Origin: Hydrogenophaga sp. SL48
Lineage (GTDB): Bacteria; Pseudomonadota; Gammaproteobacteria; Burkholderiales; Burkholderiaceae_C
Assembly (NCBI RefSeq): GCF_021729865.1
Contig: NZ_CP063400.1
Coordinates: 744,001-808,000 of the forward strand
Direction of reading: 5' to 3'
DNA: 64,000 nt
Made by a program: the position numbers and the translations under genes. A model generated the notes under the pieces. That model was given only the letters and a program-made list of their open reading frames with translations, searched no databases and had not been told where the DNA came from. Shown piece by piece: positions 49,428 to 64,000 of the stretch (position 1 is its first letter; every line of letters begins with the position of its first letter).

Positions 49428-49442
49428 GGGGCGGTGCCTTGC

Positions 49443-50237
49443 TCAGACGAAGGTGGCGTCGACCAGATCGTGCATCGCGCCCACCAGCGCTTCGTCGTCC
49501 GACAGCGGCGACACCACCGCGCTGAGGCAGGCCTGCCGGATCGGGATGCCGCTGACCACCAGCGCGGCCGCCGCGATCAGCAGGCGGGTGCTCGGCACCT
49601 CGGCCAGGCCGCGGTCGCGCAGCGCGCGCAGCCGATGCCCGAGCGACACCAGCGCCATGGCCGTGGCGTGGTCGGCGCCGGCCTCGCTCTCGATGATCGC
49701 GGCCTCGCGCGGGGCCGGCGGAAAGTCGAAGTCCAGCGCCACGAAGCGCTGCCGCGTGCTGGGCTTGAGGTCTTTCAGCATGCGCTGGTAGCCCGGGTTG
49801 TAGGAGATGACCAGCTGGAAACCGGGCGCGGCCACCAGCGTTTCGCCCGTCTTGTCGATGGGCAGGATGCGGCGGTGGTCGGTCAGCGAATGCAACACCA
49901 CCATGGTGTCCTGCCGCGCTTCGACCACCTCGTCGAGGTAGCAGATGGCGCCCTCGCGCACGGCGCGGGTGAGGGGGCCGTCCTGCCAGGCGGTGCCGTC
50001 GTGGCGGATCAGGAAACGGCCGATCAGGTCGCTGGCGCTCAGGTCGTCGTGGCACGAGATCGTGATCAGGGGGCGCTGCAGCTTCCAGGCCATGTGTTCG
50101 ACAAACCTCGTCTTGCCGCAGCCGGTGGGGCCTTTGAGCATCACGGCCAGCCGCAGGGCGTGGCAGTGCTCGAAGACCGCCACTTCCGCGCCCGAGGGCA
50201 GGTAGTACGGCTCGCCGGCGGCCACGGGAACACTCAC
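49443..50237 (-). CDS. norQ: AAA+ ATPase NorQ (CbbQ/NirQ family)
   Basis: 264 residues. Walker A is LKGPTGCGKTRFVEHM, Walker B AICYLDEVVEA, sensor-1 region VISYNPGYQ, and the C-terminus is DALVGAMHDLVDATFV-like, typical of the MoxR/CbbQ group. It partners NorD in activating NO reductase. The start is the GTG at 50237 (VSVPVAAGEPYYLPSG), which overlaps the norB stop as GTGA. A long upstream open frame in the same phase lies antisense to nothing but within norB and is rejected. Confidence 0.93.
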   Translation of the reverse strand: MSVPVAAGEPYYLPSGAEVAVFEHCHALRLAVMLKGPTGCGKTRFVEHMAWKLQRPLITISCHDDLSASDLIGRFLIRHDGTAWQDGPLTRAVREGAICYLDEVVEARQDTMVVLHSLTDHRRILPIDKTGETLVAAPGFQLVISYNPGYQRMLKDLKPSTRQRFVALDFDFPPAPREAAIIESEAGADHATAMALVSLGHRLRALRDRGLAEVPSTRLLIAAAALVVSGIPIRQACLSAVVSPLSDDEALVGAMHDLVDATFV

Positions 50238-51613
50238 CGGGTGGACAGGACCGGCCCGGCGTTGGGAGCGGGGGGCGCGCTGGCGTCCGCCTCGACATCG
50301 AAGCGCGGTGCATGGCGGAAGAAGTCGTAGATGAACAGCCCGACGCCGATCGCGAACAGCGAGCCGGTGGCGATCAGCATCACGAAGTGCACCTGGATCT
50401 TCAGCTGCGCGTCGAGGTAGCCCATGCCCATGATGCGTTCCAGGTAGACCTGCGCGATGCCGGCGGTGGCGAACGACAGCGTCATGCCGAACATGCCGCC
50501 CAGCTGCATCCAGAACGCCCAGTAGCCGAGGCTGCTGCCCTGCTCGCTGCGCCCCGGCACCATGGCCGGCAGGGCGTAGGTGATCATCGCGAGCACGATC
50601 ATGGCGTAGGCGCCGTAGAAGGCGGCGTGGCCGTGCATGGCGGTGATCAGCGTGCCGTGGGTCCACTTGTTGACGTCGGGGAAGGTGTGCGCCAGGCCCA
50701 GAAGACCGGCCCCGAACAGGGTGAACAGCGCGCTGCCGATGGTCCAGTGAAGGGCCAGCGTGTTGGGGTGCGAGAGGCCGGCGCGGCGCATGGCCGAATA
50801 CGCGAACATCGCCATGCCCACCAGCGCGGCGGGCTCCAGCGCGCTGAAGACGCCACCGATGGGCAGCCAGTACGAGGGCACGCCCACCCAGTAGTAGTGG
50901 TGCGCCGTGCCCAGGATGCCGGCGATGAAAACCAGACCCACGATCACATAGAGCCACTTCTCCATCACCTCGCGGTCGGCGCCGGACAGGCGGATCAGCA
51001 GGTAGGCCAGGAAGCCGCCCTGGATCATCACCCACACGCCCTCGACCCAGAGGTGGATCGTCCACCAGCGGTAGTAGATGGAGACGGTGTAGTTTTCGTA
51101 TTCCAGCAGCGCGGGCAGGTACAGCAGCGCCGCCAGGCCGAGGCCGAGCACCAGCACGCCCTCGGTGGTGGTGAAGCGTCTGGAGCGCCAGATCGTCATG
51201 CCGATGTTGTAGAGAAAGATCAACATGCAGATCACGATCACGATCTTGTGCGGCAGGGGCTGTTCCAGCAGCTTGTTGCCGGTGCCGTAGCGGAACAGGT
51301 AGCCCACCACGGCGGTCACGCCCATCAGGGTCCACAGGCCCAGCTGCACGTAGGCGAGCTTGACGCTGTAGAGCTCGGTGCGCGATTCGTCGGGCACCAT
51401 CCAGTAGGTGGCGCCCATGAAGCCGGTCAGCACCCACACGATCAGCAGGTTGGTGTGGATCACCTTGGTCACGTCGAACGGCAGGATGTTCAGCAGCGGA
51501 TCGGGTCCGAGGTACTTGGCGGCCGACAGCAGGCCAAACACCAGCTGCAGCCCGAACAGCACCATGGCCACGGCGAAATACCAGTAAGCGACGGATTGAG
51601 ACCTGTAGCGCAT
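50234..51613 (-). CDS. norB: Nitric oxide reductase large subunit NorB
   Basis: 459-residue, 12-helix haem-copper oxidase-family protein that reduces NO to N2O with electrons from NorC. Ligand and proton-site motifs are visible: VIHTNLLIVW (low-spin haem His), WWTIHLWVEGVW (Glu and His), AHHYYW (binuclear His pair), GHAAFYGAYAM and KIQVHFVM. There is no N-terminal quinol-oxidase extension, so it is the cytochrome-dependent cNOR. A good AGGAG site precedes the ATG at 51613. Confidence 0.97.
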   Translation of the reverse strand: MRYRSQSVAYWYFAVAMVLFGLQLVFGLLSAAKYLGPDPLLNILPFDVTKVIHTNLLIVWVLTGFMGATYWMVPDESRTELYSVKLAYVQLGLWTLMGVTAVVGYLFRYGTGNKLLEQPLPHKIVIVICMLIFLYNIGMTIWRSRRFTTTEGVLVLGLGLAALLYLPALLEYENYTVSIYYRWWTIHLWVEGVWVMIQGGFLAYLLIRLSGADREVMEKWLYVIVGLVFIAGILGTAHHYYWVGVPSYWLPIGGVFSALEPAALVGMAMFAYSAMRRAGLSHPNTLALHWTIGSALFTLFGAGLLGLAHTFPDVNKWTHGTLITAMHGHAAFYGAYAMIVLAMITYALPAMVPGRSEQGSSLGYWAFWMQLGGMFGMTLSFATAGIAQVYLERIMGMGYLDAQLKIQVHFVMLIATGSLFAIGVGLFIYDFFRHAPRFDVEADASAPPAPNAGPVLSTR

Positions 51614-51681
51614 GTCAAAACTCCTGCAGAAGTGGCGGCGGTGGACCGCGGCCTGTGTGGGCTGGACGGCTTCGAAGCCCG

Positions 51682-52521
51682 TTACTTGAAGGTCGACAGG
51701 TAGGCAGCGAGGTGCTCGACCTGCTCGGGTGTCAGGTCCTTGGCGTAGGTGTTGGGCATGAACGAGACCCCGTTGGCCGAGTACATGGCCCCCGCGACCA
51801 GGTGCGCGCTGGGCTGGGTGATCGATTCGCGGATGAAGCTCTCCAGGTCGGTGGCCGAGCCTTTGTAGTCGGGGGACGCGAGGGTCTGCTGTGTGCGTGT
51901 GGCGATGCCGGCCAGCGAGGGGCCGGCCATGTCGGCCCCGGGCGTGAGGGAGTGGCAGGCGGTGCAGGCAGGGGCGGCGCTCTGGAACACGCGCTCGCCC
52001 AGGGCCACCGGGTCTTGGCCGGACGCGCCCGCGGCGGCGGTCGGCTTTGCGGCGGCTGCGGGGCTGGCGGCGCTCCCTCCCGTGGCGCCCAGGCCGGTGA
52101 CCATGATCGGCCGCGGTGGCCAGCCCTGGTTGTCCACCTGGCTCACCCACTCGAGAAACGCGATCAGGCCGTCGATGTCGGCATCGCTCAGGTTCTGCTG
52201 GGGCATCAGCCGGCGGTGACGCTGCTCGTCGTAGAACTTCGACGGGTCTTTCAGGAAGGCCCGCAGGTAGGGCGCACCGCGCTGCTGGGCGATCTTGGTG
52301 AGGTCGGGGGCGTAGTACGCCCCTTCACCGAAGATGGTGTGGCAGTTGATGCAGTTGTTCTTGTGCCAGACGTTCTTGCCCAGGGTGACCGCAGGCGTGA
52401 TGTTCTGCGCGTTGGTCAGTTTCGGGAACTGGCGGTGGCTGTCGACGGTGAGGCCGAGAAAGATCAGCGTGGCGAGCAGCGTGGAGCCGATCGCGAAGTA
52501 GCGTGCCTGGCGTTTGTTCAT
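51682..52521 (-). CDS. norC: NorC with an additional C-terminal cytochrome c domain
   Basis: 279 residues, nearly twice the usual ~150. The first half is a normal NorC: one N-terminal membrane anchor (RYFAIGSTLLATLIFLGLTV), haem site CINCH, GEGAYYAPDL and the axial Met in RLMPQQNLS, ending at WPPRP. An Ala/Pro linker of about 25 residues follows. Then comes a second monohaem cytochrome c domain with CTACH and a second axial Met in SFMPNTYAKDL. It would bring an extra electron-entry haem to NorCB. A GGAG site precedes the ATG at 52521. norB is 68 bases downstream. Confidence 0.93.
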   Translation of the reverse strand: MNKRQARYFAIGSTLLATLIFLGLTVDSHRQFPKLTNAQNITPAVTLGKNVWHKNNCINCHTIFGEGAYYAPDLTKIAQQRGAPYLRAFLKDPSKFYDEQRHRRLMPQQNLSDADIDGLIAFLEWVSQVDNQGWPPRPIMVTGLGATGGSAASPAAAAKPTAAAGASGQDPVALGERVFQSAAPACTACHSLTPGADMAGPSLAGIATRTQQTLASPDYKGSATDLESFIRESITQPSAHLVAGAMYSANGVSFMPNTYAKDLTPEQVEHLAAYLSTFK

Positions 52522-52824: not shown

Positions 52825-53595
52825 ATGACCGCGCCACCCCTTCACGCCGCCCTCTCCGAAGCCCTGGGCCACGCCCCCAGCGACAAGCGCCTGGAAGTCC
52901 TGCGCCGCGTGGCCGAGACCGGCTCGATCTCGCAGGCCGCGCGCGATGCGGGCATCAGCTACAAGGCGGCCTGGCAGGCGATCGACACGCTGAGCAACCT
53001 GAGCGGGCAGACGCTGGTGGACCGCACGGTGGGCGGCTCGGGCGGTGGCGGTGCGCGCATCACGCCACAAGGGCTGCAACTGCTTTCTCTCGCGGACGAG
53101 CTGGCGCAGGCGCGTGAGGCGGTGCTGGCGCGTTTTGCCGGCGGGTCTTCGGGTCTGCGCTTTGGTCTGGGTTTGCGCACCAGCATGCGCAACCAGCTGC
53201 CTTGCCGGGTCGAGGCGGTGGAGCCGCTGGGGCCGGGCGATCCCACGGTGCTGGTGCGGCTGCGCACGCCGGGGCAGGCGCTGCTCACGTCCAGTGTGAC
53301 CCGCGAGAGCGCCGATCTGCTGGGCCTGCGCGCGGGGCTGGAGGTCCTGGTGCTGTGCAAGGCCACGGCGGTGCGGGTCGGACGGGATGCGGTGGACGAA
53401 GCGCCGGGCCAGTGTGTGCTGCCCGGTCGCATTCAGCGGCTGGCGCGCGGGCAGGGACGCGACGAGGTGGTGCTCGCGCTGGACGGGGGCGGTCAGTGGG
53501 TGGGCTTTGCCGATCACCCGTTTGCGGCGCGCAAGGGGCAGCTGGCCTGGGCGTCGATGGGCGTCTCGGCGCTGGTGATCGGTTTGGCGGGGTAG
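52825..53595 (+). CDS. modE: Molybdate-responsive regulator ModE
   Basis: 256 residues. An N-terminal winged helix (VAETGSISQAARDAGISYKAAWQAIDTLSN is read over residues 28-57) and two C-terminal TOBE/MOP domains (NQLPCRVEAVEPLGPGD, and LPGRIQRLARGQGRDEVVLAL) that bind molybdate. It would repress modABC through the operator at 45592-45614. It is separated from modABC by the nor block and divergent from it. A 5' pseudogene copy remains next to modABC. Confidence 0.93.
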   Translation: MTAPPLHAALSEALGHAPSDKRLEVLRRVAETGSISQAARDAGISYKAAWQAIDTLSNLSGQTLVDRTVGGSGGGGARITPQGLQLLSLADELAQAREAVLARFAGGSSGLRFGLGLRTSMRNQLPCRVEAVEPLGPGDPTVLVRLRTPGQALLTSSVTRESADLLGLRAGLEVLVLCKATAVRVGRDAVDEAPGQCVLPGRIQRLARGQGRDEVVLALDGGGQWVGFADHPFAARKGQLAWASMGVSALVIGLAG

Positions 53596-53663
53596 CGGGC
53601 TGCCCACATGGGCACCCTCGGGCATATGAACAGGTGTGCCGTACCAGGCTGGCGCAGTGCGCT

Positions 53664-53688
53664 GTTGCATGGGCCTGAATGGCGCAAC
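53664..53688. promoter_or_regulatory. Inverted repeat upstream of aldehyde dehydrogenase
   Basis: GTTGC and GCAAC separated by 15 bases, about 65 bases upstream of the sigma-54-like promoter. Such placement suits an enhancer-binding activator (for example an AcoR-type protein), but the 5-base arms are short and could be chance. Confidence 0.3.
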
Positions 53689-53749
53689 CTTTCAAAGTGT
53701 GTTGTCAAAAAAGAGAGCACTTGTCTCAGTTTGAGTCGCTTTCTGCGCG

Positions 53750-53764
53750 TGGCACGGTTGTTGA
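53750..53764 (+). promoter_or_regulatory. Sigma-54-like promoter of the aldehyde dehydrogenase gene
   Basis: TGGCAC-GGTTG-TTGA matches the sigma-54 -24/-12 pattern (TGGCAC-N5-TTGC) at nine of ten core positions. It lies about 60 bases upstream of the ATG at 53823. ExaC-type aldehyde dehydrogenases are often sigma-54-driven in related bacteria, which supports it. Confidence 0.55.
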
Positions 53765-53822
53765 GGACAGGTGAAGCAGCCGATTCGGCTTTCTTCATTT
53801 CCACCCTCAGAGGACGACACAC

Positions 53823-55343
53823 ATGCAATACGCAGCTCCCGGCACCCCCGGCGCCAAGATCGCCTACAAATCGCAATACAACAACTTCATCGGCGGCAAG
53901 TGGGTTGCCCCGGTCAAGGGCCAGTACTTTGATGTGATCTCGCCGGTGAACGGCCAGGTCTACACGCAGGCCGCCCGCTCCACCGCCGAAGACATCGACC
54001 TCGCGCTGGACGCGGCCCACGCCGCAGCCGACGCCTGGGGCAAGACCTCGGCCACCGAGCGCTCCAACATCCTGCTGAAGATCGCCGACCGCCTGGAAGC
54101 CAACCTCGAGTTGCTGGCCTACGCCGAGACGGTGGACAACGGCAAGCCGATCCGCGAAACGCTGAACGCCGACATCCCTCTGGCCATCGACCACTTCCGC
54201 TACTTCGCCGGCTGCGTGCGCGCCGAAGAAGGCAACATGAGCGAGATCGACGGTGACACCGTGGCCTACCACTTCCAGGAACCCCTGGGCGTCGTCGGCC
54301 AGATCATTCCCTGGAACTTCCCGATCCTGATGGCCGCCTGGAAGATCCCGCCGGCACTCGGCGCTGGCAACTGCATCGTGATGAAGCCGGCTGAGTCCAC
54401 CCCCATCAGCCTGTTGATCCTGATCGAGCTGATCGCCGACCTGCTGCCCCCGGGCGTGCTCAACATCGTCAACGGTTTCGGCCGCGAAGCCGGCATGCCG
54501 CTGGCGACTTCCAAGCGCATCGCCAAGATCGCGTTCACCGGCTCCACCACCACGGGCCGTGTGATTGCCCAGGCCGCCGCCAACAACCTGATCCCCGCCA
54601 CGCTGGAACTGGGCGGCAAGTCGCCCAACATCTTCTTTGCCGACATCATGGACAAAGACGATGCCTTCCTCGACAAGGCGATCGAAGGCCTGGTGCTGTT
54701 CGCGTTCAACCAGGGTGAGGTCTGCACCTGCCCGAGCCGCGCGCTGATCCAGGAAAGCATCTACGACAAGTTCATGGAGCGCGTGTTGAAGCGCGTGGCC
54801 GCCATCAAGATGGGCAGCCCGCTGGACACCGACACCATGATGGGCGCGCAGGCTTCCAAAGAGCAGCTGACCAAGATCCTGAGCTACCTGGAGCTGGGCA
54901 AGGCCGAAGGCGCCGAGGTGCTGATCGGTGGCGAGCAGGCCAAGATCGGTGGTGATCTGGACGGCGGCTACTACGTGCAGCCCACGCTGTTCAAGGGCCA
55001 CAACAAGATGCGCATCTTCCAGGAAGAAATCTTCGGCCCGGTGCTGGCCGTGACCACTTTCAAGGACGAAGCCGAAGCCCTGGCGATTGCCAACGACACG
55101 CTGTACGGCCTGGGTGCCGGCGTGTGGTGCCGCAACGGCAACCTGGCCTACCGCATGGGCCGCGCCATCAAGGCTGGCCGTGTGTGGACCAACTGCTACC
55201 ACGCCTACCCCGCACACGCTGCGTTCGGCGGCTACAAGGAATCGGGCCTGGGCCGCGAAAACCACAAGGCGATGTTGGGCCACTACCAGCAGACCAAAAA
55301 CCTGCTGGTCAGCTACAGCGAGAACAAGCTGGGCTTCTTCTGA
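53823..55343 (+). CDS. exaC: NAD-dependent aldehyde dehydrogenase (ExaC/AcoD type)
   Basis: 506 residues. The catalytic Cys is in [15 protein letters not shown], the general-base Glu in [13 protein letters not shown], and the NAD-binding GSTTTGR in the N-terminal domain. The CTCPSR context and the long, conserved C-terminus [21 protein letters not shown] are typical of the ExaC/AcoD acetaldehyde dehydrogenases that oxidise the product of PQQ-alcohol dehydrogenase. A DUF779 gene follows, the usual partner, and PQQ-related genes are nearby. Confidence 0.93.
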
Positions 55344-55367
55344 TCCGCCCGGATTGAGGTGAGGTTC

Positions 55368-55402
55368 AAGGGGAGCTGGCAACGGCTCCCCTTTTCGCTT
55401 TC
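55368..55402 (+). terminator. Rho-independent-like terminator after exaC
   Basis: AAGGGGAGC (55368-55376) pairs perfectly with GCTCCCCTT (55385-55393) over an 8-base loop, followed by a T-rich run (TTTTCGCTTT). It lies 25 bases after the exaC stop and 18 before the DUF779 ATG, so it probably attenuates rather than fully stops transcription into the partner gene. Confidence 0.7.
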
Positions 55403-55419
55403 AGAACAAGGAGACAGTC

Positions 55420-55812
55420 ATGGTTGAAAAAGTCATTGCCACCCCGGCGGCGGTCGAGCTGATTCAGTTGCTCAAGAGCAAGCACGGCCCCGAGCTGATG
55501 TTTCACCAGAGTGGCGGCTGCTGCGACGGCAGCGCGGCCAACTGCTACCTGCCCGGCGAGATCACGATGGGCGCGGGCGACGTGTGGCTGGGCGAGATCG
55601 GGGGCTGCGGTTTCTACATCGGCAAGGCGCAGTACGCGCTATGGCGCCACACCCAGCTCATCATCGACGTGATCGATGGACAAGGGGGCACCTTCTCGAT
55701 CGAAGGGCCGGAGGGCAAAGCGTTTCTCACGCGCTCGCGCGTGTTCACCGAGGTCGAGATGGCCGAGCTGGAGGCGCAGGAGCGGGCTGCCGGCGTGGCA
55801 CCACACCGCTGA
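55420..55812 (+). CDS. DUF779 family protein
   Basis: 130 residues. The family signature MFHQSGGCCDGSAANCY with clustered Cys is near residue 30, and GGCGFYIGKAQYALWRHTQL follows. DUF779 genes commonly follow ExaC-type aldehyde dehydrogenases. The Cys cluster suggests metal or redox chemistry, but the role is unknown. It has a GGAG-type site (aaggagacagtc) before the ATG. Confidence 0.9.
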   Translation: MVEKVIATPAAVELIQLLKSKHGPELMFHQSGGCCDGSAANCYLPGEITMGAGDVWLGEIGGCGFYIGKAQYALWRHTQLIIDVIDGQGGTFSIEGPEGKAFLTRSRVFTEVEMAELEAQERAAGVAPHR

Positions 55813-55951
55813 TGGCACAGCGGGTGTTCCATTTCCGAACACCTTCACCCCCGGACAGCGTGGCACGGAACTTGTAGCCAGAATCGGCTGGAACAACCGC
55901 CACCGACCCGGGGCTCATGCACACGCCGGGCGATTTTGTTGGAGACACGAC

Positions 55952-58051
55952 ATGAACCCACGCCCCTGCTTTGCCCTTCGCCGCCTGAACGCCGCGCTGC
56001 TGATCGCCCTGACCAGCGCCAGCGCGGCCCACGCCCAGACCACCCTGCAGGAGGTCGTGGTCACCGCCAACCGGCAGGAACAGAAGAGCTTCGACGCGCC
56101 CGCGTCCATCCAGGCCGTGGGGCAGGACGTGATCGAGGCGGCGGGGCCGCGCGTGAACCTGTCCGAGGCCATGAACCGCATCCCCGGCATCACGGTGCTC
56201 AACCGCCAGAACTACGCGCAGGACCTGCAGCTGTCGATCCGTGGCTCGGGTTCGCGTTCGCCGTTTGGCATCCGCGGCGCGCGCCTGATCGTCGACGGCA
56301 TCCCCGCCACCATGCCCGATGGCCAGGGCCAGGCTTCGACCATCAGCCTGCCCTCGGCGCAGCGCATCGAGGTGCTGCGCGGCCCGCTGGCCCAGCTCTA
56401 CGGCAACTCGGCCGGGGGCGTGCTGCAGGTGTTCACCGCCGACGGACCCAAGACCCCCGAGGTGCGCTTCAGCGTGGACGCGGGTTCCGACAACCTGCGG
56501 CGCTACGGCCTGCAGGCGGCGGGGCAGAGCGGTTCGCTGAACTACGTGATCGACCACAGCGACTTCTCCACCGACGGCTGGCGCACCAACGGCGCGGCCA
56601 AGCGCCAACACACCAACGCCAAGCTGCGTTGGGCGGCCAGCGAACAGACGAAATTCACCCTGGTGGCCAACGCCTTCGACCAGCCCGAATCGGGCGACCC
56701 GCTGGGCCTGACGCGCGAGCAGTTCCAGGCCAACCCGCGCCAGGCGGTGGCGAACTCGACCCTGTACCACGCGGGCAAGGACGTGTCGCAGAACCAGGTC
56801 GGCCTGGTGGCCGAACACAAGATCGACGCCCGGAGCGACATCACGGCACGGGTCTACGCGGGCGAACGCGATCTGGACAATCGGCTCTCGATTCCGCTGG
56901 TGGCGCAGACCTCGCCCACGGCGGCGGGCGGCGTGGTGCAGCTGGACCGCAGCTACAGCGGCACCGGCCTGCGCTACGCACGCCGCATCGCGGCCGGTGA
57001 AGGCGAGGTTCGCCTGAGTGCGGGGCTCGATGTGGAGCGCATGAGCGAGCGCCGCCGTGGCTTCATCAACAACCTGGGCGAGCAGGGCGAGCTCAAACGC
57101 GACGAAGACGACAGCGTCGACAGCACGGGCGTCTACACCCAGGCCGACTGGGCGATCAACGAAGGCTGGAGCGCGGTGGCCGGCCTGCGCGCCAACCGGG
57201 TGAACTTCCGGGTGAAGGATTTCTTCGTGCGCCCCGGCAACCCCGACGACAGCGGCCGCACGCGCTTCAACGCCACCAACCCCGTGATCGGTCTCACGCG
57301 CCACCTGAGCCCCGACACCAACGTCTACGCCAACATCGGCAAGGGCTTCGAGACACCGACGCTGACCGAGATCGCCTACACCGCCGACGGCAGCGGCCCC
57401 AACCTCCACCTCAAGTCCGCGCGCAGCACGCACGTGGAGCTGGGCCTGAAGACCAAGCTGGGCGAAGGCCAGCGGCTGGACGCGGCCCTGTTCCACATCG
57501 GCACCACCGACGAGATCGTGGTCGCGTCCAGCAGCGGCGGGCGCACGGTCTACACCAACGCCGGCAAGACCAGTCGCTCGGGCATCGAGCTGGCCCACAG
57601 CGCGCAGTGGAGCCCCGAGTGGCGCACGCATCTGGCGTTCTCCACACTGAACGCGCGCTTCGACCAGGCCTTCACCAGCGGCAGCGGCGCCACCGTGGCC
57701 AAGGGCAACCGCATCCCCGGCACGATGAACCGCACGCTGTTCGGCGAACTGGCCTGGCAGCCGCGCGCCTGGCCCGGCTTCACCGCCGCGCTGGAGGCGG
57801 TGCACCGCGGATCGATGGTGGTCGACGATGTGAACAGCGACCGCACCGACGCGGCCACCCTGTTCAACCTGCGGCTGGGCTGGGAGCAGAAGCTGGGCGC
57901 GTGGAAGCTCAAGGAGTACCTGCGCGTGGACAACCTGGCCGACAAGGCCACCATCGGCTCGGTGATTGCCAACGACGGCAACCGGCGCTTCTTCGAGCCG
58001 GCACCAGGTCGGCAGTGGGGCGTTGGTGTGACGGTCGGCTACGCTTTTTAA
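55952..58051 (+). CDS. pqqU: TonB-dependent PQQ receptor-like protein
   Basis: 699 residues, the size of E. coli YncD (now PqqU, the PQQ receptor). A signal peptide ends at AHAQ, a TonB-box-like TLQEVVVTA is next, a plug domain (about residues 40-150) and a 22-strand barrel ending in GYAF follow. The plug carries NRQNYAQDLQLSIRG and VDGIPATMPDGQGQ, and the barrel has DDEIVV-like TDEIVVASSSGGRTVYTNAGK. These match what I know of YncD very closely. The start at ATG 55952 follows a TTGGAGA site. The longer frame to 55676 is rejected. Confidence 0.9.
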   Translation: MNPRPCFALRRLNAALLIALTSASAAHAQTTLQEVVVTANRQEQKSFDAPASIQAVGQDVIEAAGPRVNLSEAMNRIPGITVLNRQNYAQDLQLSIRGSGSRSPFGIRGARLIVDGIPATMPDGQGQASTISLPSAQRIEVLRGPLAQLYGNSAGGVLQVFTADGPKTPEVRFSVDAGSDNLRRYGLQAAGQSGSLNYVIDHSDFSTDGWRTNGAAKRQHTNAKLRWAASEQTKFTLVANAFDQPESGDPLGLTREQFQANPRQAVANSTLYHAGKDVSQNQVGLVAEHKIDARSDITARVYAGERDLDNRLSIPLVAQTSPTAAGGVVQLDRSYSGTGLRYARRIAAGEGEVRLSAGLDVERMSERRRGFINNLGEQGELKRDEDDSVDSTGVYTQADWAINEGWSAVAGLRANRVNFRVKDFFVRPGNPDDSGRTRFNATNPVIGLTRHLSPDTNVYANIGKGFETPTLTEIAYTADGSGPNLHLKSARSTHVELGLKTKLGEGQRLDAALFHIGTTDEIVVASSSGGRTVYTNAGKTSRSGIELAHSAQWSPEWRTHLAFSTLNARFDQAFTSGSGATVAKGNRIPGTMNRTLFGELAWQPRAWPGFTAALEAVHRGSMVVDDVNSDRTDAATLFNLRLGWEQKLGAWKLKEYLRVDNLADKATIGSVIANDGNRRFFEPAPGRQWGVGVTVGYAF

Positions 58052-58218
58052 GCCGGTCAGGGACGCAGAGCCTGAGAAGCATTTGACCGCATGGGCGCAT
58101 GCTGGTCGAGCTGCAGAAGCCTTGCCCGAGCAGGCCCGGGAAGAGGTCTGGCAGGCAAAAAAACGATGTGATAGCCTGCACGGCAAAGAGCCGCCAAGGC
58201 TTGACCAGCGGCCGGAAC

Positions 58219-59766
58219 ATGCTGTCCAACACCAACCACGCCATCCTGCAGAGCATCATCGACAACCTGCCGAGCGGGGTCACGATGTTCGATGCAGACC
58301 AGCGTCTGGTGGCCTACAACCAGCAGGTGCGCACGCTGCTGGATTTTCCGGACGAGCTGTTCGCCCACGGCATGCCCACGTTGCACGACTTTGCCCTGTT
58401 CAACGCCAGACGCGGTGAGTATGGTCCGGGCGACCCGGAGAAACAGGCCCGCGCGGTGTGTGATCGAGCCCACAAGCAGCAGGCCCACGTGTTCGAGCGC
58501 CAGCGACCCGATGGCACGGTGCTCGAGATTCGCGGCACCCCCCTGCCCACCGGCGGGTTCGTTTCGATCTACACCGATGTCACAGAACGCAAGCGCACCG
58601 AGCGGGAGGCCCGCCGGCTGGCGGTCTATCTGGACGCCGTGATCAATGCGCTGCCGCAAGGGGTGACCGTGATCGACGAGCACCTGGTGATCCGGCTGTG
58701 GAACCGCAGCTTCGAGCAACTGCTTGATCTGCCCGAGGGACTGATGAAACCTGGTGTGACCTTCGAGGATGTGGCCCGCAGCAATGCCCTGCGTGGCGAG
58801 TATGGTGATGTGGACGTCGAAGCCAAGGTGTCCGAGGCGACCGCCCTGGCCCGCCAGTTTTTGCCGCACCGCCTGATCCGGCAGCGACCGAATGGGCGCA
58901 CGCTGGAGATCGAGGGCAGCGCGCTGAGCATCGACGGGCAGATCCGCGGGTTCGTGACCACCTACACCGACATCACCGAACTGCGCGACACCCAGGGTGC
59001 CCTGGAGCGGCTGAACACGGAGCTGGACCAACGGGTGACCCAACGCACGCGCGCCCTGCAGGACCTCAACAAGGAGCTGGAGTCCTTCACCTATTCGGTG
59101 TCGCACGACCTGCGCACGCCGCTGCGCAGCATTCAGGGTTTCTCGACGCTGTTGCTGGAGACCGAGGCCGACAAGCTCAGCGAGCAGGGCCGCACGTCGC
59201 TGCAACGCATCCAGTCCAACGCGGGTCGGATGGGCTCGCTGATCACCGACCTGCTGTCCATGGCCCAGCACAGCCGCAAGGACCTGGACCTGCAGCGGGT
59301 CGACCTGAGCGAGGTGGCACAGGTTGTGGCCGCCGAGCTGCAGCGGGGCGACCCGGGCCGCCGGGCCGACTGGCGCATCGAGCCAGGGCTGTGGGTCCAG
59401 GCCGACCTCGGGCTGGTGCTGCTGGTGTTGCAGAACCTCCTGGGCAACGCCTGGAAGTACAGCGCGCAAAGGGACGTGGCGGTGATCGAACTGAGCCGCA
59501 GCGGCGGGACCGACGGCATGTGCTGGTTCGAGCTGCGAGACAACGGCGCCGGCTTCGACATGCAATACGCCGACCAGCTGTTCCAGCCCTTCAAGCGGCT
59601 GCACCGCCCGAACGAGTTTGAGGGCACGGGCATTGGCCTGGCCATCGTGCAGCGCATCCTGCATCGGCACGGCGGCTCCGTCACCGGTCAGGCCGAGGTC
59701 GGCCAGGGTGCCCTCTTCAGGTTCTGCCTGCCCTGCGCGCAGGCCGAGCTGCCCCAAGGACTCTGA
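58219..59766 (+). CDS. Tandem-PAS sensor histidine kinase
   Basis: 515 residues. Two PAS domains of the PAS_7 type (LPSGVTMFDADQRLVAYNQQ near residue 17, LPQGVTVIDEHLVIRLWNRS near 145), a HisKA domain with FTYSVSHDLRTPLRS, and HATPase_c with NLLGNAWKYS, DNGAGFD and GTGIGLAIVQRI. There is no membrane segment. It lies between pqqU and the PQQ-associated ABC genes. Orphan kinases of this type often control alcohol-oxidation regulons, but no receiver is next to it. The ATG at 58219 is chosen over an earlier in-frame one at 58099. Confidence 0.88.
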   Translation: MLSNTNHAILQSIIDNLPSGVTMFDADQRLVAYNQQVRTLLDFPDELFAHGMPTLHDFALFNARRGEYGPGDPEKQARAVCDRAHKQQAHVFERQRPDGTVLEIRGTPLPTGGFVSIYTDVTERKRTEREARRLAVYLDAVINALPQGVTVIDEHLVIRLWNRSFEQLLDLPEGLMKPGVTFEDVARSNALRGEYGDVDVEAKVSEATALARQFLPHRLIRQRPNGRTLEIEGSALSIDGQIRGFVTTYTDITELRDTQGALERLNTELDQRVTQRTRALQDLNKELESFTYSVSHDLRTPLRSIQGFSTLLLETEADKLSEQGRTSLQRIQSNAGRMGSLITDLLSMAQHSRKDLDLQRVDLSEVAQVVAAELQRGDPGRRADWRIEPGLWVQADLGLVLLVLQNLLGNAWKYSAQRDVAVIELSRSGGTDGMCWFELRDNGAGFDMQYADQLFQPFKRLHRPNEFEGTGIGLAIVQRILHRHGGSVTGQAEVGQGALFRFCLPCAQAELPQGL

Positions 59767-59798
59767 GAGGCTGAGAGGACATCGACCCGGCCCGGGAC

Positions 59799-60539
59799 TC
59801 AGAGCCCCGGCTTTTGCAACGCCTTCAATACCTCGGTCTGGAAGTCCGGGCCTTCGGCTGCGGCCATGAAGGCGTCGATGTTGCCATCGAAGCGCACCGT
59901 GCCCTGGTGCAGCAGCATCAGGCGGTCGGCGGTCTTCACCTCTTCGATCAGGTGCGTCGCCCAGAGCACGGCCATGCCGCGCTCTTTGCACAGGCCACGC
60001 ACGGTGTCGAGCAGTTGCTGGCGCGAGGCCGGGTCCAGGCCCACGGTGGCTTCGTCCATCAGCAACACGCGTGGCTCGTGCAGCAGCGCGCGCACCAGTT
60101 CCACCTTGCGCCGCGTGCCGCCCGAGAGGCTGCGCACCACCGCCTTCGCCTGATCGGCCAGGCCCATGCGGGCGAGGCCCGCTTCGATGCGCTGCCTCGC
60201 CACCGAGCGCGGCAGGCCGTGCAGGTCGGTGTGGAACAGCAGGTTGGCCATCACCGGCAGGTCCATGTCGAGCGCGGTCTGCTGGAACACCACGCCCAGC
60301 GACGCCAGCGCGCGGCTGGGGTGGCGCTGCATGTCGTGTCCCATCACCACGATGCGGCCCTGGTCGGGGCTGAAGAGGCCGGTGAGCAGTTGCAGCAGGG
60401 TCGATTTGCCCGCGCCGTTGGGGCCGAGCAGGGCGACCATCTCGCCGCCTTTCAGGCTCACGCTCACGCCCTTGAGCGCGGGCTTGCTGCCGTAACTTTT
60501 GTGCAGGTTGTCCGCGTGCAGCGGCAGGGTGTCGGTCAT
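59799..60539 (-). CDS. ABC transporter ATP-binding protein, PQQ-dependent alcohol dehydrogenase system type
   Basis: 246 residues. Walker A is GPNGAGKSTLLQLL, the signature SLSGGTRRKVELVRAL, Walker B VLLMDEATVGLDP, and the switch His is in LWATHLIEE. The sequence (notably FQQTALDMDLPV and GHDMQRHPSRALASLG) fits the ABC-2-type ATPase group found with PQQ-dependent alcohol dehydrogenases. It is encoded opposite to the beta-propeller and binding protein. No permease is in the window. It is co-directional with the upstream binding-protein gene, 25 bases away. Confidence 0.82.
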   Translation of the reverse strand: MTDTLPLHADNLHKSYGSKPALKGVSVSLKGGEMVALLGPNGAGKSTLLQLLTGLFSPDQGRIVVMGHDMQRHPSRALASLGVVFQQTALDMDLPVMANLLFHTDLHGLPRSVARQRIEAGLARMGLADQAKAVVRSLSGGTRRKVELVRALLHEPRVLLMDEATVGLDPASRQQLLDTVRGLCKERGMAVLWATHLIEEVKTADRLMLLHQGTVRFDGNIDAFMAAAEGPDFQTEVLKALQKPGL

Positions 60540-60564
60540 GCGGGTGTCTGGGGTGGGGCGCCGT

Positions 60565-61584
60565 TCAGGCCGGCTTGGCGAGCAGGTTCATGCGCGCGAG
60601 CAGCTTCTTCTCGCGCTCCACCGTGGCCAGCACGGCCTGGCGGTAGTCGCGGGTGTTGAGGTAGTCCAGCGACTGATCGTACTTGGCGAGCGCGCTGGTG
60701 TGGCGCTCGCTGACCATGGCCCTGTGGAACACGTCGTGCAGCTTCTGGATCACGGCCGCCGGCGTGCCCGCAGGTGCGGCCAGGCCCCAGGGCGAGGTGT
60801 AGACCGCCTGCGGGTAACCGAGCTCGCGCATCGTGGGCGCGTCGGGCCAGCGCGGGTTGCGCGTGGCGTTGAAGGTGGCCAGCAGCCGTATCTGCCCCCG
60901 ATCCACCCAGGGTGCGAAGCCGGTGGAATTGACGCCGGCCATGATCTGCGCGCCAGCGATCGCGAGCATCTGGTCGGCCGTGCCCTTGTAGGGCACGTGC
61001 ACGTAGCTCACGTTGTGCTGCAGCAGGATGTCTTCCATCGCCAGGTGCGCGGTGGTGCCGATGCCGGTGGAGCCGAGGATGAGTTCACCCGGGTGCCTGA
61101 TCGCCCAGTCGATCAGCTCGGCGGCGCTCTTGAACGGGCTGCTGGTGGGCACCAGCAGGCCGAAGCTCACCCCCGAGACCTGCACGATGGGCGCGAGGTC
61201 GGCCACCGGGTCCCAGGGCACGTGGTTCATCAGCGCGTGGCGGTACACGGTGATGGGCACCTGGCCGATGGTGTGGCCGTCGGGCTCGGCCGCCTTCAAG
61301 GCCGGCGCCACCAGCGTGCCGGCCGCGCCGGGCTTGTTGACCACCACGATGGGCTGGCCGAGCAGCGGCTCGGCCTCTTCGCAGAGGATGCGCAGGGTCA
61401 GGTCGGTCTGCCCGCCGGCGGGCCAGGGCACGATGAGCTGCACCGGCTTGCTGGGCCAGGCCACCGGCGTGTTTTGCGCCAAGGCCTGCAGCGGCAACAG
61501 GCCGCCGAGGCCCCAGGCCAGCAGCTCGCGGCGGCGCGGTGCAAGAGGTGTCTGAGGCGGGGGAGAGTCGGTGTGGTGGTTCAT
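60565..61584 (-). CDS. Tripartite tricarboxylate transporter-type binding protein (Bug/TctC family)
   Basis: 339 residues. The mature N-terminus, WPSKPVQLIVPWPAGGQTD, is the Bug signature, with HVPYKGTADQMLAIAG further on. The signal peptide has consecutive arginines before a hydrophobic core (PRRRELLAWGLGGLLPLQALA), compatible with Tat export. No tctA/tctB lies nearby. It may serve the ABC ATPase region only by position. The start is the ATG at 61584. A GTG at 61620 is the alternative, and neither has a clear ribosome-binding site. Confidence 0.88.
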   Translation of the reverse strand: MNHHTDSPPPQTPLAPRRRELLAWGLGGLLPLQALAQNTPVAWPSKPVQLIVPWPAGGQTDLTLRILCEEAEPLLGQPIVVVNKPGAAGTLVAPALKAAEPDGHTIGQVPITVYRHALMNHVPWDPVADLAPIVQVSGVSFGLLVPTSSPFKSAAELIDWAIRHPGELILGSTGIGTTAHLAMEDILLQHNVSYVHVPYKGTADQMLAIAGAQIMAGVNSTGFAPWVDRGQIRLLATFNATRNPRWPDAPTMRELGYPQAVYTSPWGLAAPAGTPAAVIQKLHDVFHRAMVSERHTSALAKYDQSLDYLNTRDYRQAVLATVEREKKLLARMNLLAKPA

Positions 61585-61785
61585 CGCGGGACAGGCAAAG
61601 AGCTCCGGGTTCAGAGGCACATGGCACGGTCAAAGGCAAGTTCTGTTCCCGTTTGGCTGGCATCATTTTTGCGGCAATCGGCTGCGCCGCAGAGGTGTCG
61701 CAACACAGCACAGGGTTTGTCCCTAGGCCGTGCGCGCCCCGGCCAGCGGTTCAATCACCTCAGTCCATACCAAGGAGACAGACAC

Positions 61786-62787
61786 ATGGCTTTTTCATCG
61801 CGCCCTTCTTCGTTCAACCCTCTGCGCTCGGCCCTGCTGGCCGCCGGCCTGTGCACCGCCCTCACCGCAGCCCACGCCCAGGGCGCGGGCAAGGTGTATG
61901 TGTCGAGCGAGAAGGACAACCAGATCCACGTGTTCAACGCGAGCGGCGAGCGCCAGGGCGCCATCGACGTGTGCAAGCGGCCGCGCGACATGTCGTTCAG
62001 CGCCGACGGCCAGCAGATCATGGTGATCTGCGGCGACAGCAACGCCATGGGGCTGGTGAATGTGGCCACCGGCAAACTGACTGGCACTGTTCCATTGGGG
62101 GACAGTCCCGAGATGTTCGACCTGAGTCCGGATGGCAAAACCGCCTATGTGTCGATCGAGGACGAGAACGTGATGGCGGCCTACGACATCGCGACGAAGA
62201 AGCCGGTGTTCGAGGTGAAGACCGGTGGCGAACCCGAAGGCGTGCTGGTCACGCCGGACGGCAAGACGGCCTACGTCACCTCCGAGGTGGCCAACGTGGT
62301 CCACGTGATCGACCTCGGCACGAAGAAGGTGACGAAGAACATCAAGGTCGGCAAGCGACCGCGCCGCTTTGTGATGTCGCCCGACGGCAGCGAACTCTGG
62401 GTCACCAACGAACTCGACGCCACCGTCAGCGTGGTGGACACCAAGACGCACACCGAAAAGCAGAAGATCAAGTTCGAGGTCAAGGGCATGCGCCAGGCCG
62501 ACATCACGCCCGTGGGCATGACCCTCAGCCCGGATGGCAAGAGCATGTGGGTCGGGCTGGGCAAGGCCAACCACGTGGCCGAGGTCGATGTCGCCACCAA
62601 GGCGGTGAAGACCCAGGTGCTGGTGGGCAAGCGCGCCTGGGGCATGGGCTTCCACCCCGATGGCAAGACGCTGTATGTGGCCAACGGTCTGTCGGACGAC
62701 ATGACGCTGGTGGACACGGCGAGTGGCAAGGCGCTGAAGACGGTGCCGGCCGGGCGCGTGCCTCACTCGATTTTGGTGAGTAAATGA
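61786..62787 (+). CDS. PQQ-dependent catabolism-associated beta-propeller protein
   Basis: 333 residues. A signal peptide ends at AAHAQ. The rest is YVTN-type beta-propeller repeats, for example LSPDGKTAYVSIEDENVMAAYD, VTPDGKTAYVTSEVANVVHVID, FHPDGKTLYVANGLSDDMTLVD, each about 42 residues. It is the family that accompanies the PQQ-alcohol-dehydrogenase ABC genes. It probably acts in the periplasm. An AAGGAG site lies before the ATG. Its stop overlaps the next gene by ATGA. Confidence 0.9.
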   Translation: MAFSSRPSSFNPLRSALLAAGLCTALTAAHAQGAGKVYVSSEKDNQIHVFNASGERQGAIDVCKRPRDMSFSADGQQIMVICGDSNAMGLVNVATGKLTGTVPLGDSPEMFDLSPDGKTAYVSIEDENVMAAYDIATKKPVFEVKTGGEPEGVLVTPDGKTAYVTSEVANVVHVIDLGTKKVTKNIKVGKRPRRFVMSPDGSELWVTNELDATVSVVDTKTHTEKQKIKFEVKGMRQADITPVGMTLSPDGKSMWVGLGKANHVAEVDVATKAVKTQVLVGKRAWGMGFHPDGKTLYVANGLSDDMTLVDTASGKALKTVPAGRVPHSILVSK

Positions 62788-64000
62788 CCCACCCCCGTCG
62801 CTTGTTCGCTTCGCGTAACCGCTCCTCCCCTCAAGGGGCAATGCCTGCGGCCCGTCCTGAGCTTGTCGAAGGGCAGTTCCGCGGCATTCTGGTTTGGGGT
62901 GCCCTGCGCGCCTGCGGGTTGGCGTTGTTTGGCTTGGCTGGTTTGTTCTCCCTGCCTGCTTTCGCGGCGACCAAGGTCACCATCGCCGTGGTGTCGCTGG
63001 ACGGTGATCCGCGTTACGCGCCGCGCCGCATGGAGAAGGCCTACCCCGGTCACCCGACGGGTCGCGCCATCGACGGCGTGAAGCTGGCGGCGGAAGATTC
63101 GGCGTTCGAGCTGGACGCAGCGGGGCTGGAGCTGGTGGTGAAGGACGTGGTCTTGCCCAACGCGGCCGCGTTGCCCAAGGCGCTGGCCGAGCTGAAGGCC
63201 GCCAAGGTGCAGCACGTGGTGGCCGACCTGCCGTTGCCCGAGTTGCGCGCCCTGGTGCAGGCCGCGCCCACGGCGCTGGGTGGCGCCATCGTGTTCAACA
63301 CCGCGCTGGACGACGACAGCCTGCGCGGGGTGCAGTGCGCCGCGCACCTGCTGCACACGGCGCCCAGCCGCGCCATGCTGAGCGACACGCTGGCGCAGTA
63401 CCTGGCCGCGCGCAACTGGCGCAAGGCGCTGCTGCTGCAGGGCCCCTTGCCGGCCGACGTGCCGATGACCGAGGCCTTCAACCGCTCGGCCAAACGCTTT
63501 GGCATCAAGGTCGTGGCGCAGAAGCCGTTCAAGCTCACCGGCGATCCGCGCGAACGCGACCTCGGCAACACGCGCCTGCTCACCGGCGACCGCGAACACG
63601 AGGTGGTGGCGGTGATGGACAGCGACGGCGAGTTCGCGCGCCTGCTGCCCTACGCCACGCAATGGCCGCGCCCGGTGGTGGGCGCCAACGGCCTGGTGGC
63701 CACGGCCTGGCACCCGCAGTGGGAGCGCTACGGCGGCCCGCAACTCACGCGCCGCTTTGTCAAGCTCGCGCAGCGGCCCATGCAGGGCCCCGACTGGGCG
63801 GCCTGGGCCGCGGGCCGCGCGGTGGCCACGGTGCTCGCCGAGAACCCGAAGGCGCCGGTGGCTCAGCAGCTCAAGGCGCTGCGCGGCGGCAGCACCACGC
63901 TTGACGGTTTCAAGGGCCGCAACCTCTCGTTCCGTGCCTGGGACGGTCAACTGCGCCAGCCGCTGTTCCTGAGCCACGTGGACGGTGTGGTCGGCACCGC
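62784..64000 (+). CDS. PQQ-associated ABC transporter substrate-binding protein (partial, right edge)
   Basis: At least 405 residues, running off the window. The ATG overlaps the propeller stop (ATGA). The exported mature part starts ATKVTIAVVSLDGDPRYAPRR and is the branched-chain-amino-acid-receptor fold of the family that accompanies PQQ-dependent alcohol oxidation. The N-terminal ~35 residues (MTHPRRLFASRNRSSPQ and on) precede a hydrophobic signal core (LALFGLAGLFSLPAFA). They include PAARPELVEGQ, the translated product of a REP-type palindrome (62850-62874), so the signal peptide n-region is repeat-derived. Confidence 0.85.
   Translation, partial: MTHPRRLFASRNRSSPQGAMPAARPELVEGQFRGILVWGALRACGLALFGLAGLFSLPAFAATKVTIAVVSLDGDPRYAPRRMEKAYPGHPTGRAIDGVKLAAEDSAFELDAAGLELVVKDVVLPNAAALPKALAELKAAKVQHVVADLPLPELRALVQAAPTALGGAIVFNTALDDDSLRGVQCAAHLLHTAPSRAMLSDTLAQYLAARNWRKALLLQGPLPADVPMTEAFNRSAKRFGIKVVAQKPFKLTGDPRERDLGNTRLLTGDREHEVVAVMDSDGEFARLLPYATQWPRPVVGANGLVATAWHPQWERYGGPQLTRRFVKLAQRPMQGPDWAAWAAGRAVATVLAENPKAPVAQQLKALRGGSTTLDGFKGRNLSFRAWDGQLRQPLFLSHVDGVVGT
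62850..62874 (+). repeat. REP-type palindrome inside the binding-protein gene (copy D)
   Basis: GCCCGTCCTGAGCTTGTCGAAGGGC, an imperfect palindrome of the well-known TCGACAAGCTCAGGAC class. It is embedded in frame in the signal peptide region of the PQQ-associated binding protein and translated as ARPELVEG. Just upstream, tcccctcaaggggcaa resembles the hairpin of the longer A-C repeats, so the two repeat types are adjacent. Confidence 0.85.

What the first reader, a model, noticed from the sequence alone, without database searches (positions are those of the whole stretch)
55952..64000. PqqU-like receptor beside PQQ-associated ABC genes: possible PQQ scavenging and use locus
The TonB receptor shares with E. 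coli YncD/PqqU the plug segments NRQNYAQDLQLSIRG and VDGIPATMPDGQGQ and a matching barrel segment, from memory of that protein. Within 10 kb lie an ExaC-type aldehyde dehydrogenase, DUF779, a PAS kinase, and the ABC ATPase, propeller and binding protein that accompany PQQ-dependent alcohol dehydrogenases. Neither pqq synthesis genes nor the quinoprotein appear in the window. Physical linkage of receptor and ABC genes suggests that one imports PQQ through the outer membrane while the other handles a later step.
Basis: partly seen in the sequence, partly recalled or inferred. Interest (0 to 1): 0.78.

Follow-up and report, generated by a model that had tools for sequence, protein, structure and literature searches.

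The report
PQQ receptor within alcohol-oxidation gene cluster
A Hydrogenophaga bacterium carries an outer-membrane importer for the enzyme cofactor PQQ near the genes that make PQQ, the alcohol-oxidizing enzyme that uses it, and a probable rare-earth-metal importer; each part is known, but their grouping suggests that even PQQ makers recapture the cofactor.

Summary
The receptor (55952-58051, 699 aa) is 43% identical to E. coli PqqU, folds closest to PQQ-bound PqqU and keeps the published PQQ signature (F for Y99, R304, R365) plus K274 and R536. It misses the NCBIfam PqqU cut-off (618 vs 1200 bits), as by E-value must its 29 relatives scanned. Past the window end lie the ABC permease, SoxYZ-like carrier, metallohydrolase, a lanthanide-type (DYD) PQQ-alcohol dehydrogenase, cytochrome c and pqqABCDE. 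The organism thus can make PQQ; the receptor more likely recaptures it or tops it up than being the only source.

The ABC genes are PedA1A2BC-type, tied in Pseudomonas putida to lanthanide supply, so probably not a later PQQ step. In 120 family genomes the receptor follows the quinoprotein (43 of 51 with it, 24 of 69 without), not pedA1 (25 of 31 vs 18 of 20 among quinoprotein carriers). It lies within 15 kb of the enzyme in 18 of 43 (about 0.7 expected). Ten of 20 genomes with both within 30 kb lack pqqE and pqqC. H. palleronii keeps it 8 kb from a calcium-type enzyme, with no pqqE, pqqC or pedA1 found.

A known receptor family in a telling context.

The parts
53823..55343 (+). ExaC-type acetaldehyde dehydrogenase, the step after periplasmic ethanol oxidation
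   Evidence: NF050026 952 bits vs cut-off 900
55420..55812 (+). DUF779 protein that follows exaC
   Evidence: PF05610 134.7 bits vs 25
55952..58051 (+). PqqU-type TonB-dependent PQQ receptor, 699 aa, signal peptide by eye; pocket residues Q90, F105, Q127, K276, R306, R368, Y476, R531
   Evidence: PDB 6v81/9c4o E 5e-152 and 1e-150; residue map; Foldseek best hit 9c4o TM 0.89
58219..59766 (+). PAS-PAS-HisKA-HATPase histidine kinase; perhaps regulatory; found at this place in the window and L009 but not in L010-L013 or L015
   Evidence: Pfam; context
59799..60539 (-). PedB-type ABC ATPase (TIGR03864)
   Evidence: 318 bits vs cut-off 302
60565..61581 (-). Bug/TctC-type periplasmic binding protein, conserved between pedB and pedA2 in L009-L013
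   Evidence: PF03401 215 bits; context
61831..62787 (+). PedA2-type beta-propeller (TIGR03866)
   Evidence: 298.5 bits vs cut-off 287.3
62784..64000 (+). PedA1-type substrate-binding protein (TIGR03863); gene continues to window-equivalent 64088, followed outside the window by pedC, SoxYZ-like carrier, metallohydrolase, PQQ-ADH, cytochrome c and, on the other strand, pqqABCDE
   Evidence: 428 bits vs cut-off 413.6; downstream genes

Best explanation
The receptor is a PqqU-family TonB-dependent transporter that brings PQQ from outside into the periplasm. There it charges the periplasmic PQQ-dependent alcohol dehydrogenase encoded about 9 kb downstream. Because the same chromosome segment carries pqqABCDE, the receptor most likely recaptures PQQ that leaks out through the outer membrane and adds PQQ made by neighbours. 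The ABC genes beside it are a PedA1A2BC/Lut-type system that most likely handles the lanthanide for the DYD-type dehydrogenase, not PQQ. The locus is thus one cofactor-supply island for alcohol oxidation: PQQ synthesis, PQQ recapture, metal supply, enzyme, electron carriers and aldehyde removal. Shown here: gene identities, residue signature, predicted fold, co-occurrence and linkage. Inferred: transport of PQQ by this protein, the recapture role, and the metal role of the ABC genes.
For: Sequence and fold: E. coli PqqU is the closest solved relative (E 5e-152 and 1e-150, next 2e-13), and the Foldseek best hit is PQQ-bound PqqU (TM 0.89, 41% identity; first other receptor FecA, TM 0.79, 18%). 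Signature of Munder et al. met: F at 99, R304, R365, plus K274, R536, Q84, Q121 and Y481. Among 81 receptors examined (the window and the best 80 of 587 relatives, so near relatives by selection) F99, K274, R304, R365 and R536 are constant. Tree: the node uniting it with 99 other PqqU-type sequences, E. coli included, apart from five other TonB receptors of this genome, has support 0.95. Co-occurrence in 120 family genomes: PqqU in 43 of 51 with the quinoprotein and 24 of 69 without (p 4e-8); 23 of 26 quinoprotein carriers without pqqE have it. Linkage: 18 of 43 within 15 kb vs about 0.7 expected. Ten of 20 genomes with receptor and enzyme within 30 kb lack pqqE, and the same ten lack pqqC. 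H. palleronii keeps exaC-DUF779-receptor-SoxYZ-metallohydrolase-cytochrome c and, 8 kb on, a DFS (calcium-type, recalled) enzyme, with pqqE, pqqC and pedA1 not found. Lanthanide role of the ABC set: PMC6839425 and PMC12997753 passages.
Against: The NCBIfam PqqU cut-off is not met (617.9 vs 1200 bits), though the best E-value among the 30 family sequences scanned, 1.7e-238, implies that none of them meets it. 24 of 67 receptor genomes have no TIGR03075 quinoprotein at the threshold used; other quinoprotein classes were not surveyed there. Two of the 20 genomes reached through loci (G127 and G137, metagenome bins) have receptor and pedA1 but no such quinoprotein. Linkage is not obligatory: in the other genome of the same genus in the sample (G114) the pqq/ped/ADH cluster lies at 3.1 Mb and the receptor at 0.62 Mb, 15 kb from a second dehydrogenase. 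Q308, Q310 and N477 are replaced (N, L, T). Inside the PqqU clade the nodes next to E. coli are weakly supported (0.74, 0.21). I found no transport, binding or expression data for this protein. No sigma-70-type promoter was found at 53500-62000, so co-regulation is untested.
Confidence: 0.8

Rival explanations
1. The receptor is the functional counterpart of LutH: an outer-membrane importer of a lanthanide or lanthanide-chelate that feeds the neighbouring Ped/Lut-type ABC importer.
For: Position: in Methylorubrum extorquens AM1 a TonB receptor (lutH) lies in the same cluster as the Lut ABC genes (PMC7391723 passages). All four Ped subunits and a DYD-type dehydrogenase are here. Of the other five TonB receptors found in this genome, four pass the siderophore-receptor cut-off and one is B12-type under its cut-off, so no dedicated lanthanide receptor is evident.
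Against: The PQQ-pocket residues are conserved. The receptor is no commoner with pedA1 than without among quinoprotein carriers (25 of 31 vs 18 of 20). Five of 17 fetched linked loci with an enzyme, and the H. palleronii locus, pair it with enzymes lacking the lanthanide Asp (DxS or DxT). In H. palleronii pedA1 was not found. LutH itself was not compared (no sequence at hand), and a siderophore-type receptor could also carry lanthanides.
Confidence: 0.07
2. One reading: the ABC system moves PQQ (or a PQQ precursor) across the inner membrane after the receptor brings it in.
For: Family names of three of the four ABC models mention the PQQ-dependent dehydrogenase system or catabolism. The permease and ATPase also match exporter models, so PQQ export to the periplasm cannot be excluded by sequence.
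Against: Deleting pedA1A2BC in P. putida left growth with PedE unchanged, which also needs PQQ, and raised the La requirement of PedH about 100-fold (PMC6839425 passages). Within the family, 20 of 51 quinoprotein genomes have no pedA1 at the threshold used. Quinoproteins are periplasmic, so imported PQQ need not cross the inner membrane (PMC12124388).
Confidence: 0.06
3. The neighbourhood is a chance or lineage-specific placement and the receptor has no special tie to this dehydrogenase.
For: G114, of the same genus, has the receptor elsewhere. Most of the 80 related loci show no relative of the PQQ-ADH locus genes within the DNA held, though 33 of the 105 tree tips had too little flank to tell.
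Against: 18 of 43 linked within 15 kb vs about 0.7 expected; nine separate linked groups on the receptor tree by parsimony, in a sample partly chosen for linkage; conserved placement in L009-L013 and L015.
Confidence: 0.07

Closest known systems
E. coli PqqU (YncD), PDB 9c4o and 6v81
   Same: Predicted fold, plug segments, PQQ-contacting residues Q84, Q121, K274, R304, R365, Y481, R536 and aromatic 99
   Different: 43% identity; F not Y at 99; Q308N, Q310L, N477T; this host has the pqq genes and the receptor lies in a quinoprotein locus, whereas E. coli lacks PQQ synthesis (PMC12124388)
ped cluster of Pseudomonas putida KT2440 (PedA1A2BC, PedH, PedE)
   Same: All four ABC subunit types, a lanthanide-type dehydrogenase, cytochrome c, quinoprotein-associated proteins
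   Different: pedB is on the opposite strand and a TctC-type protein is interposed; a PqqU-type receptor is built in; pqqABCDE is near, while in P. putida it is distant (PMC12997753 passage)
lut cluster of Methylorubrum extorquens AM1
   Same: TonB receptor beside a lanthanide-type ABC importer (PMC7391723 passages)
   Different: The receptor here is of the PqqU family; direct comparison with LutH was not made
Four Burkholderiales genomes with pqqU-pqq synteny in Munder et al. 2025
   Same: pqqU in the neighbourhood of the pqq operon, in the taxonomic order to which Hydrogenophaga belongs (recalled)
   Different: Those were in the same orientation; here pqqABCDE is on the opposite strand, pqqE 16 kb away. 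Fig. S11 was not seen, so whether Hydrogenophaga is among them is unknown

Membership tests
PqqU (PQQ receptor) | Signature of Munder et al.: aromatic at 99, Arg at 304 and 365 | tested here: met
   F105, R306, R368 in the 699-aa protein
PqqU (PQQ receptor) | Plug and barrel whose predicted fold is closest to the PqqU structures | tested here: met
   Model pLDDT 86.9; best Foldseek hit 9c4o, TM 0.89; the 22 strands were not counted
PqqU (PQQ receptor) | Groups with E. coli PqqU to the exclusion of other TonB receptors | tested here: met
   100-sequence clade, support 0.95, against five TonB receptors of the same genome only; nodes within it near E. coli weak
PqqU (PQQ receptor) | Curated cut-off of NCBIfam NF041535 (1200 bits) | tested here: not met
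   617.9 bits. The model matches 30 of 30 family sequences, best E 1.7e-238, which implies that none passes; I read the cut-off as narrow and file by the experimental residue signature, not by this model
PqqU (PQQ receptor) | Binds and imports PQQ, needs TonB | not testable with these tools
   Needs bench work
PedA1A2BC / Lut-type lanthanide ABC importer | Four subunit types: binding protein, propeller, ATPase, permease | tested here: met
   TIGR03863, TIGR03866, TIGR03864, TIGR03861 all over cut-off
PedA1A2BC / Lut-type lanthanide ABC importer | Predicted single transcript of all four genes, as in P. putida | tested here: not met
   pedB is on the - strand, the other three on the + strand; an organisation difference, not a family criterion
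PedA1A2BC / Lut-type lanthanide ABC importer | Needed for growth at low lanthanide | not testable with these tools
   Known for P. putida through PMC6839425 passages
Lanthanide-type PQQ alcohol dehydrogenase | Second Asp two residues after the catalytic Asp (DxD) | tested here: met
   PNDGWDYDGVN; the meaning of the motif is recalled and supported in general terms by a PMC10875860 passage on XoxF
LutH-type lanthanide receptor | Sequence homology to LutH | not tested
LutH-type lanthanide receptor | Presence tied to lanthanide enzyme or lanthanide ABC genes | tested here: not met
   Found with DxS/DxT enzymes and where pedA1 was not found

The most novel reading that the evidence does not exclude
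In this locus PQQ doubles as a metal carrier: the cell secretes PQQ, which chelates lanthanides, and PqqU retrieves the PQQ-lanthanide complex, supplying both halves of the dehydrogenase cofactor at once, with the Ped ABC genes taking surplus lanthanide to the cytoplasm. K274 (not the Glu that Munder et al. link to metal co-binding) and the pairing with calcium-type enzymes in relatives argue against it but do not exclude it.
Probability: 0.05. Interest if true: 0.85.

Novelty: new member of a known kind. Interest (0 to 1): 0.42.

Why it matters
It places a PQQ receptor inside a PQQ-synthesis and lanthanide-alcohol-oxidation island. That supports the idea that producers also recapture this costly cofactor, and it gives a simple rule: in this family pqqU often sits beside the enzyme it serves. 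The contrast between Hydrogenophaga genomes with pqq genes and H. palleronii, in which pqqE and pqqC were not found, offers a natural pair for testing recapture versus scavenging. It also warns against reading any TonB receptor beside Ped/Lut ABC genes as a lanthanide receptor.

Tried and rejected
Rejected: ABC genes as the inner-membrane step for PQQ (P. putida deletion phenotype; no extra co-occurrence of pedA1 with the receptor). Rejected: receptor as lanthanide receptor. Considered: metal co-import through a K274E-type pocket; the residue is K in all 81 receptors and in 19 of 19 receptors of the fetched loci L109-L128, so not supported. In those 19, R536 is K in one (L124), missing from one fragment (L128) and R in 17, Q84 is G in three (L074, L077, L081). 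Promoter scan gave none. Literature searches: no listed title or abstract start, and no passage that I read, describes pqqU beside quinoproteins. Read: PMC12124388 parts 1-4 of 8 and passages; PMC6839425 part 2 of 7 and passages; PMC12997753, PMC7391723, PMC11658791 and PMC11996626 passages; PMC10875860 section 11 and passages; other listed papers in the listing only. Limits: thresholds were 1e-60 for pqqE, 1e-40 for pedA1, 1e-90 for the dehydrogenase (family TIGR03075 only) and 1e-80 for the receptor; genomes reached through loci, including H. palleronii, carry no completeness value, so absences there are weaker; the motif of the second H. palleronii dehydrogenase (contig C64) was not examined; the chance figure of 0.7 assumes random placement; of 20 linked genomes 17 were fetched besides the window's own, G030 and G076 not; 33 of 105 tree tips had unknown linkage state, linked loci were partly chosen for being linked, and E. 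coli was set to unlinked from memory.
Full report
What is there. The window is positions 744001-808000 of a 5.43-Mb genome held in one contig. The receptor relatives with 95% and 92% identity are from Hydrogenophaga, so the genus is Hydrogenophaga or very near it. The receptor runs 55952-58051, 699 aa. Around it are exaC, DUF779, a PAS histidine kinase, a PedB-type ATPase and a TctC-type protein on the other strand, then a propeller and a binding protein. Beyond the window the + strand carries the PedC-type permease (TIGR03861, 333 vs 241 bits) and SoxYZ-like carrier (TIGR04557, 218.5 vs 140), a metallohydrolase (TIGR04558, 415 vs 300) and a PQQ alcohol dehydrogenase (TIGR03075, 754 vs 480), then a cytochrome c. 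The - strand carries pqqB, C, D and E, each over its cut-off, and a 24-residue PqqA-like peptide at window-equivalent 77639-77713 (motif identity recalled).

Is it PqqU? Sequence: 42.7% identity over 672 residues. Published PQQ contacts: Q84, Q121, K274, R304, R365, Y481 and R536 are identical and Y99 is F, which Munder et al. accept. Q308, Q310 and N477 differ; alanine at 308 or 310 was tolerated in E. coli. The AlphaFold model (mean pLDDT 86.9) is closest to PqqU with PQQ (TM 0.89) and apo PqqU (0.88), then FecA (0.79). In a tree with the five other TonB receptors found in this genome, it falls in the clade with E. coli PqqU, support 0.95; two inner nodes next to E. coli are weak, 0.74 and 0.21. 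It fails the NCBIfam cut-off, and the best E-value implies that its 29 scanned relatives fail too. I file it as PqqU by the experimental signature and say so.

What are the ABC genes? All four match the models for the set named pedA1, pedA2, pedB and pedC in P. putida. There, loss of the set raised the La requirement of the lanthanide enzyme about 100-fold and left growth with the calcium enzyme unchanged (PMC6839425 passages). Since both enzymes need PQQ, this speaks for metal rather than PQQ. The dehydrogenase here has the DYD motif (meaning recalled). A second dehydrogenase at 4.5 Mb also has DYD. The metal role in Hydrogenophaga remains inference.

Does the receptor go with the enzyme or with the ABC genes? 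In 120 family genomes: receptor 67, dehydrogenase 51, pedA1 31, pqqE 26. The receptor is in 43 of 51 genomes with the dehydrogenase and 24 of 69 without (Fisher p 4e-8). Among dehydrogenase genomes it is in 25 of 31 with pedA1 and 18 of 20 without (p 0.46). It is in 23 of 26 that lack pqqE and 20 of 25 that have it. So it follows the quinoprotein. Against this, two of the 20 genomes reached through loci (G127, G137, both metagenome bins) have receptor and pedA1 but no such dehydrogenase.

Linkage. Receptor and dehydrogenase are within 15 kb in 18 of 43 genomes that have both, against about 0.7 expected by random placement, and within 30 kb in 20. Receptor and pqqE are within 30 kb in 3 of 21, consistent with the published statement that pqqU and pqq are generally not syntenic. 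Ten of the 20 linked genomes lack pqqE, and those ten also lack pqqC; nine of them are listed as at least 99% complete. Of 17 fetched linked loci with an enzyme, 12 have DxD and 5 DxS or DxT. By parsimony the linked state falls into nine groups on the receptor tree, with 33 of 105 tips unknown and the sample partly chosen for linkage.

The Hydrogenophaga comparison. Five loci (L009-L013; L013 is titled an uncultured Burkholderiales bin) keep the arrangement exaC, receptor, pedB, TctC, pedA2, pedA1, pedC, SoxYZ, metallohydrolase (DUF779 was not detected in L011). The dehydrogenase is seen in three of them within the DNA held, and all five genomes encode one with DxD. In L010-L013 pqqE lies 12.6-26.7 kb from the receptor. 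In L015 (H. palleronii) the block is exaC, DUF779, receptor, SoxYZ, metallohydrolase, cytochrome c, with an enzyme bearing DFS 8 kb from the receptor; no pedA1, pqqE or pqqC was found in that genome, whose second dehydrogenase I did not examine. The receptor stays where the metal importer and PQQ synthesis were not found. In contrast, G114 of the same genus has the receptor 15 kb from its other dehydrogenase and not in its pqq/ped cluster.

Reading. The most economical account is PQQ import or recapture for the local dehydrogenase, with the metal delivered by the ABC genes. Munder et al. note that PQQ leaks out by diffusion and that some organisms combine synthesis and scavenging. What this adds is the context: receptor, enzyme, metal importer and synthesis in one island, and a linkage rule within this family. 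No title, abstract start or passage that I saw describes receptor-quinoprotein linkage, but the supplement of the key paper was not looked at (cap zero).

Verdict. Observation confirmed; interpretation partly supported; a new member of a known receptor family in an informative context. Interest is moderate.

Noticed in passing
60565-61581 (-): A Bug/TctC-type solute-binding protein is conserved between pedB and pedA2 in L009-L013, and TctC-type genes also sit beside ped genes in L109, L127 and L128. It may be an unrecognised partner of the Ped importer; TctAB genes were not sought.
   Followed up: partly
L118:15760-16050 (genome G018): A stand-alone pqqD-like gene beside a DFS-type dehydrogenase in a genome listed as 100% complete, with no pqqE or pqqC match and with PqqU: possibly a remnant of lost PQQ synthesis.
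   Followed up: partly
L006:10714-11406 (-), window-equivalent 70714-71406: DUF5666 protein with a long Asp-rich tail, 2 kb downstream of the lanthanide-type dehydrogenase; a possible metal-binding protein.
   Followed up: no
58219-59766: The PAS kinase between the receptor and pedB was found in the window and L009 but not in L010-L013, so it may be a recent insertion or loss; its partner regulator was not sought.
   Followed up: partly
L006:18888-19919 (+), window-equivalent 78888-79919: A second quinoprotein-type metallohydrolase (TIGR04558, 153 bits, under the cut-off of 300) just past pqqA.
   Followed up: no
47394-52521: By eye from the ORF list, a nitric-oxide-reductase-like group (NorC, NorB, NorQ, NorD) precedes the locus; identities were not tested.
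   Followed up: no
L036, L040, L061: Metagenome bins titled Bordetella parapertussis carry receptors of this environmental clade; the titles are probably wrong.
   Followed up: no
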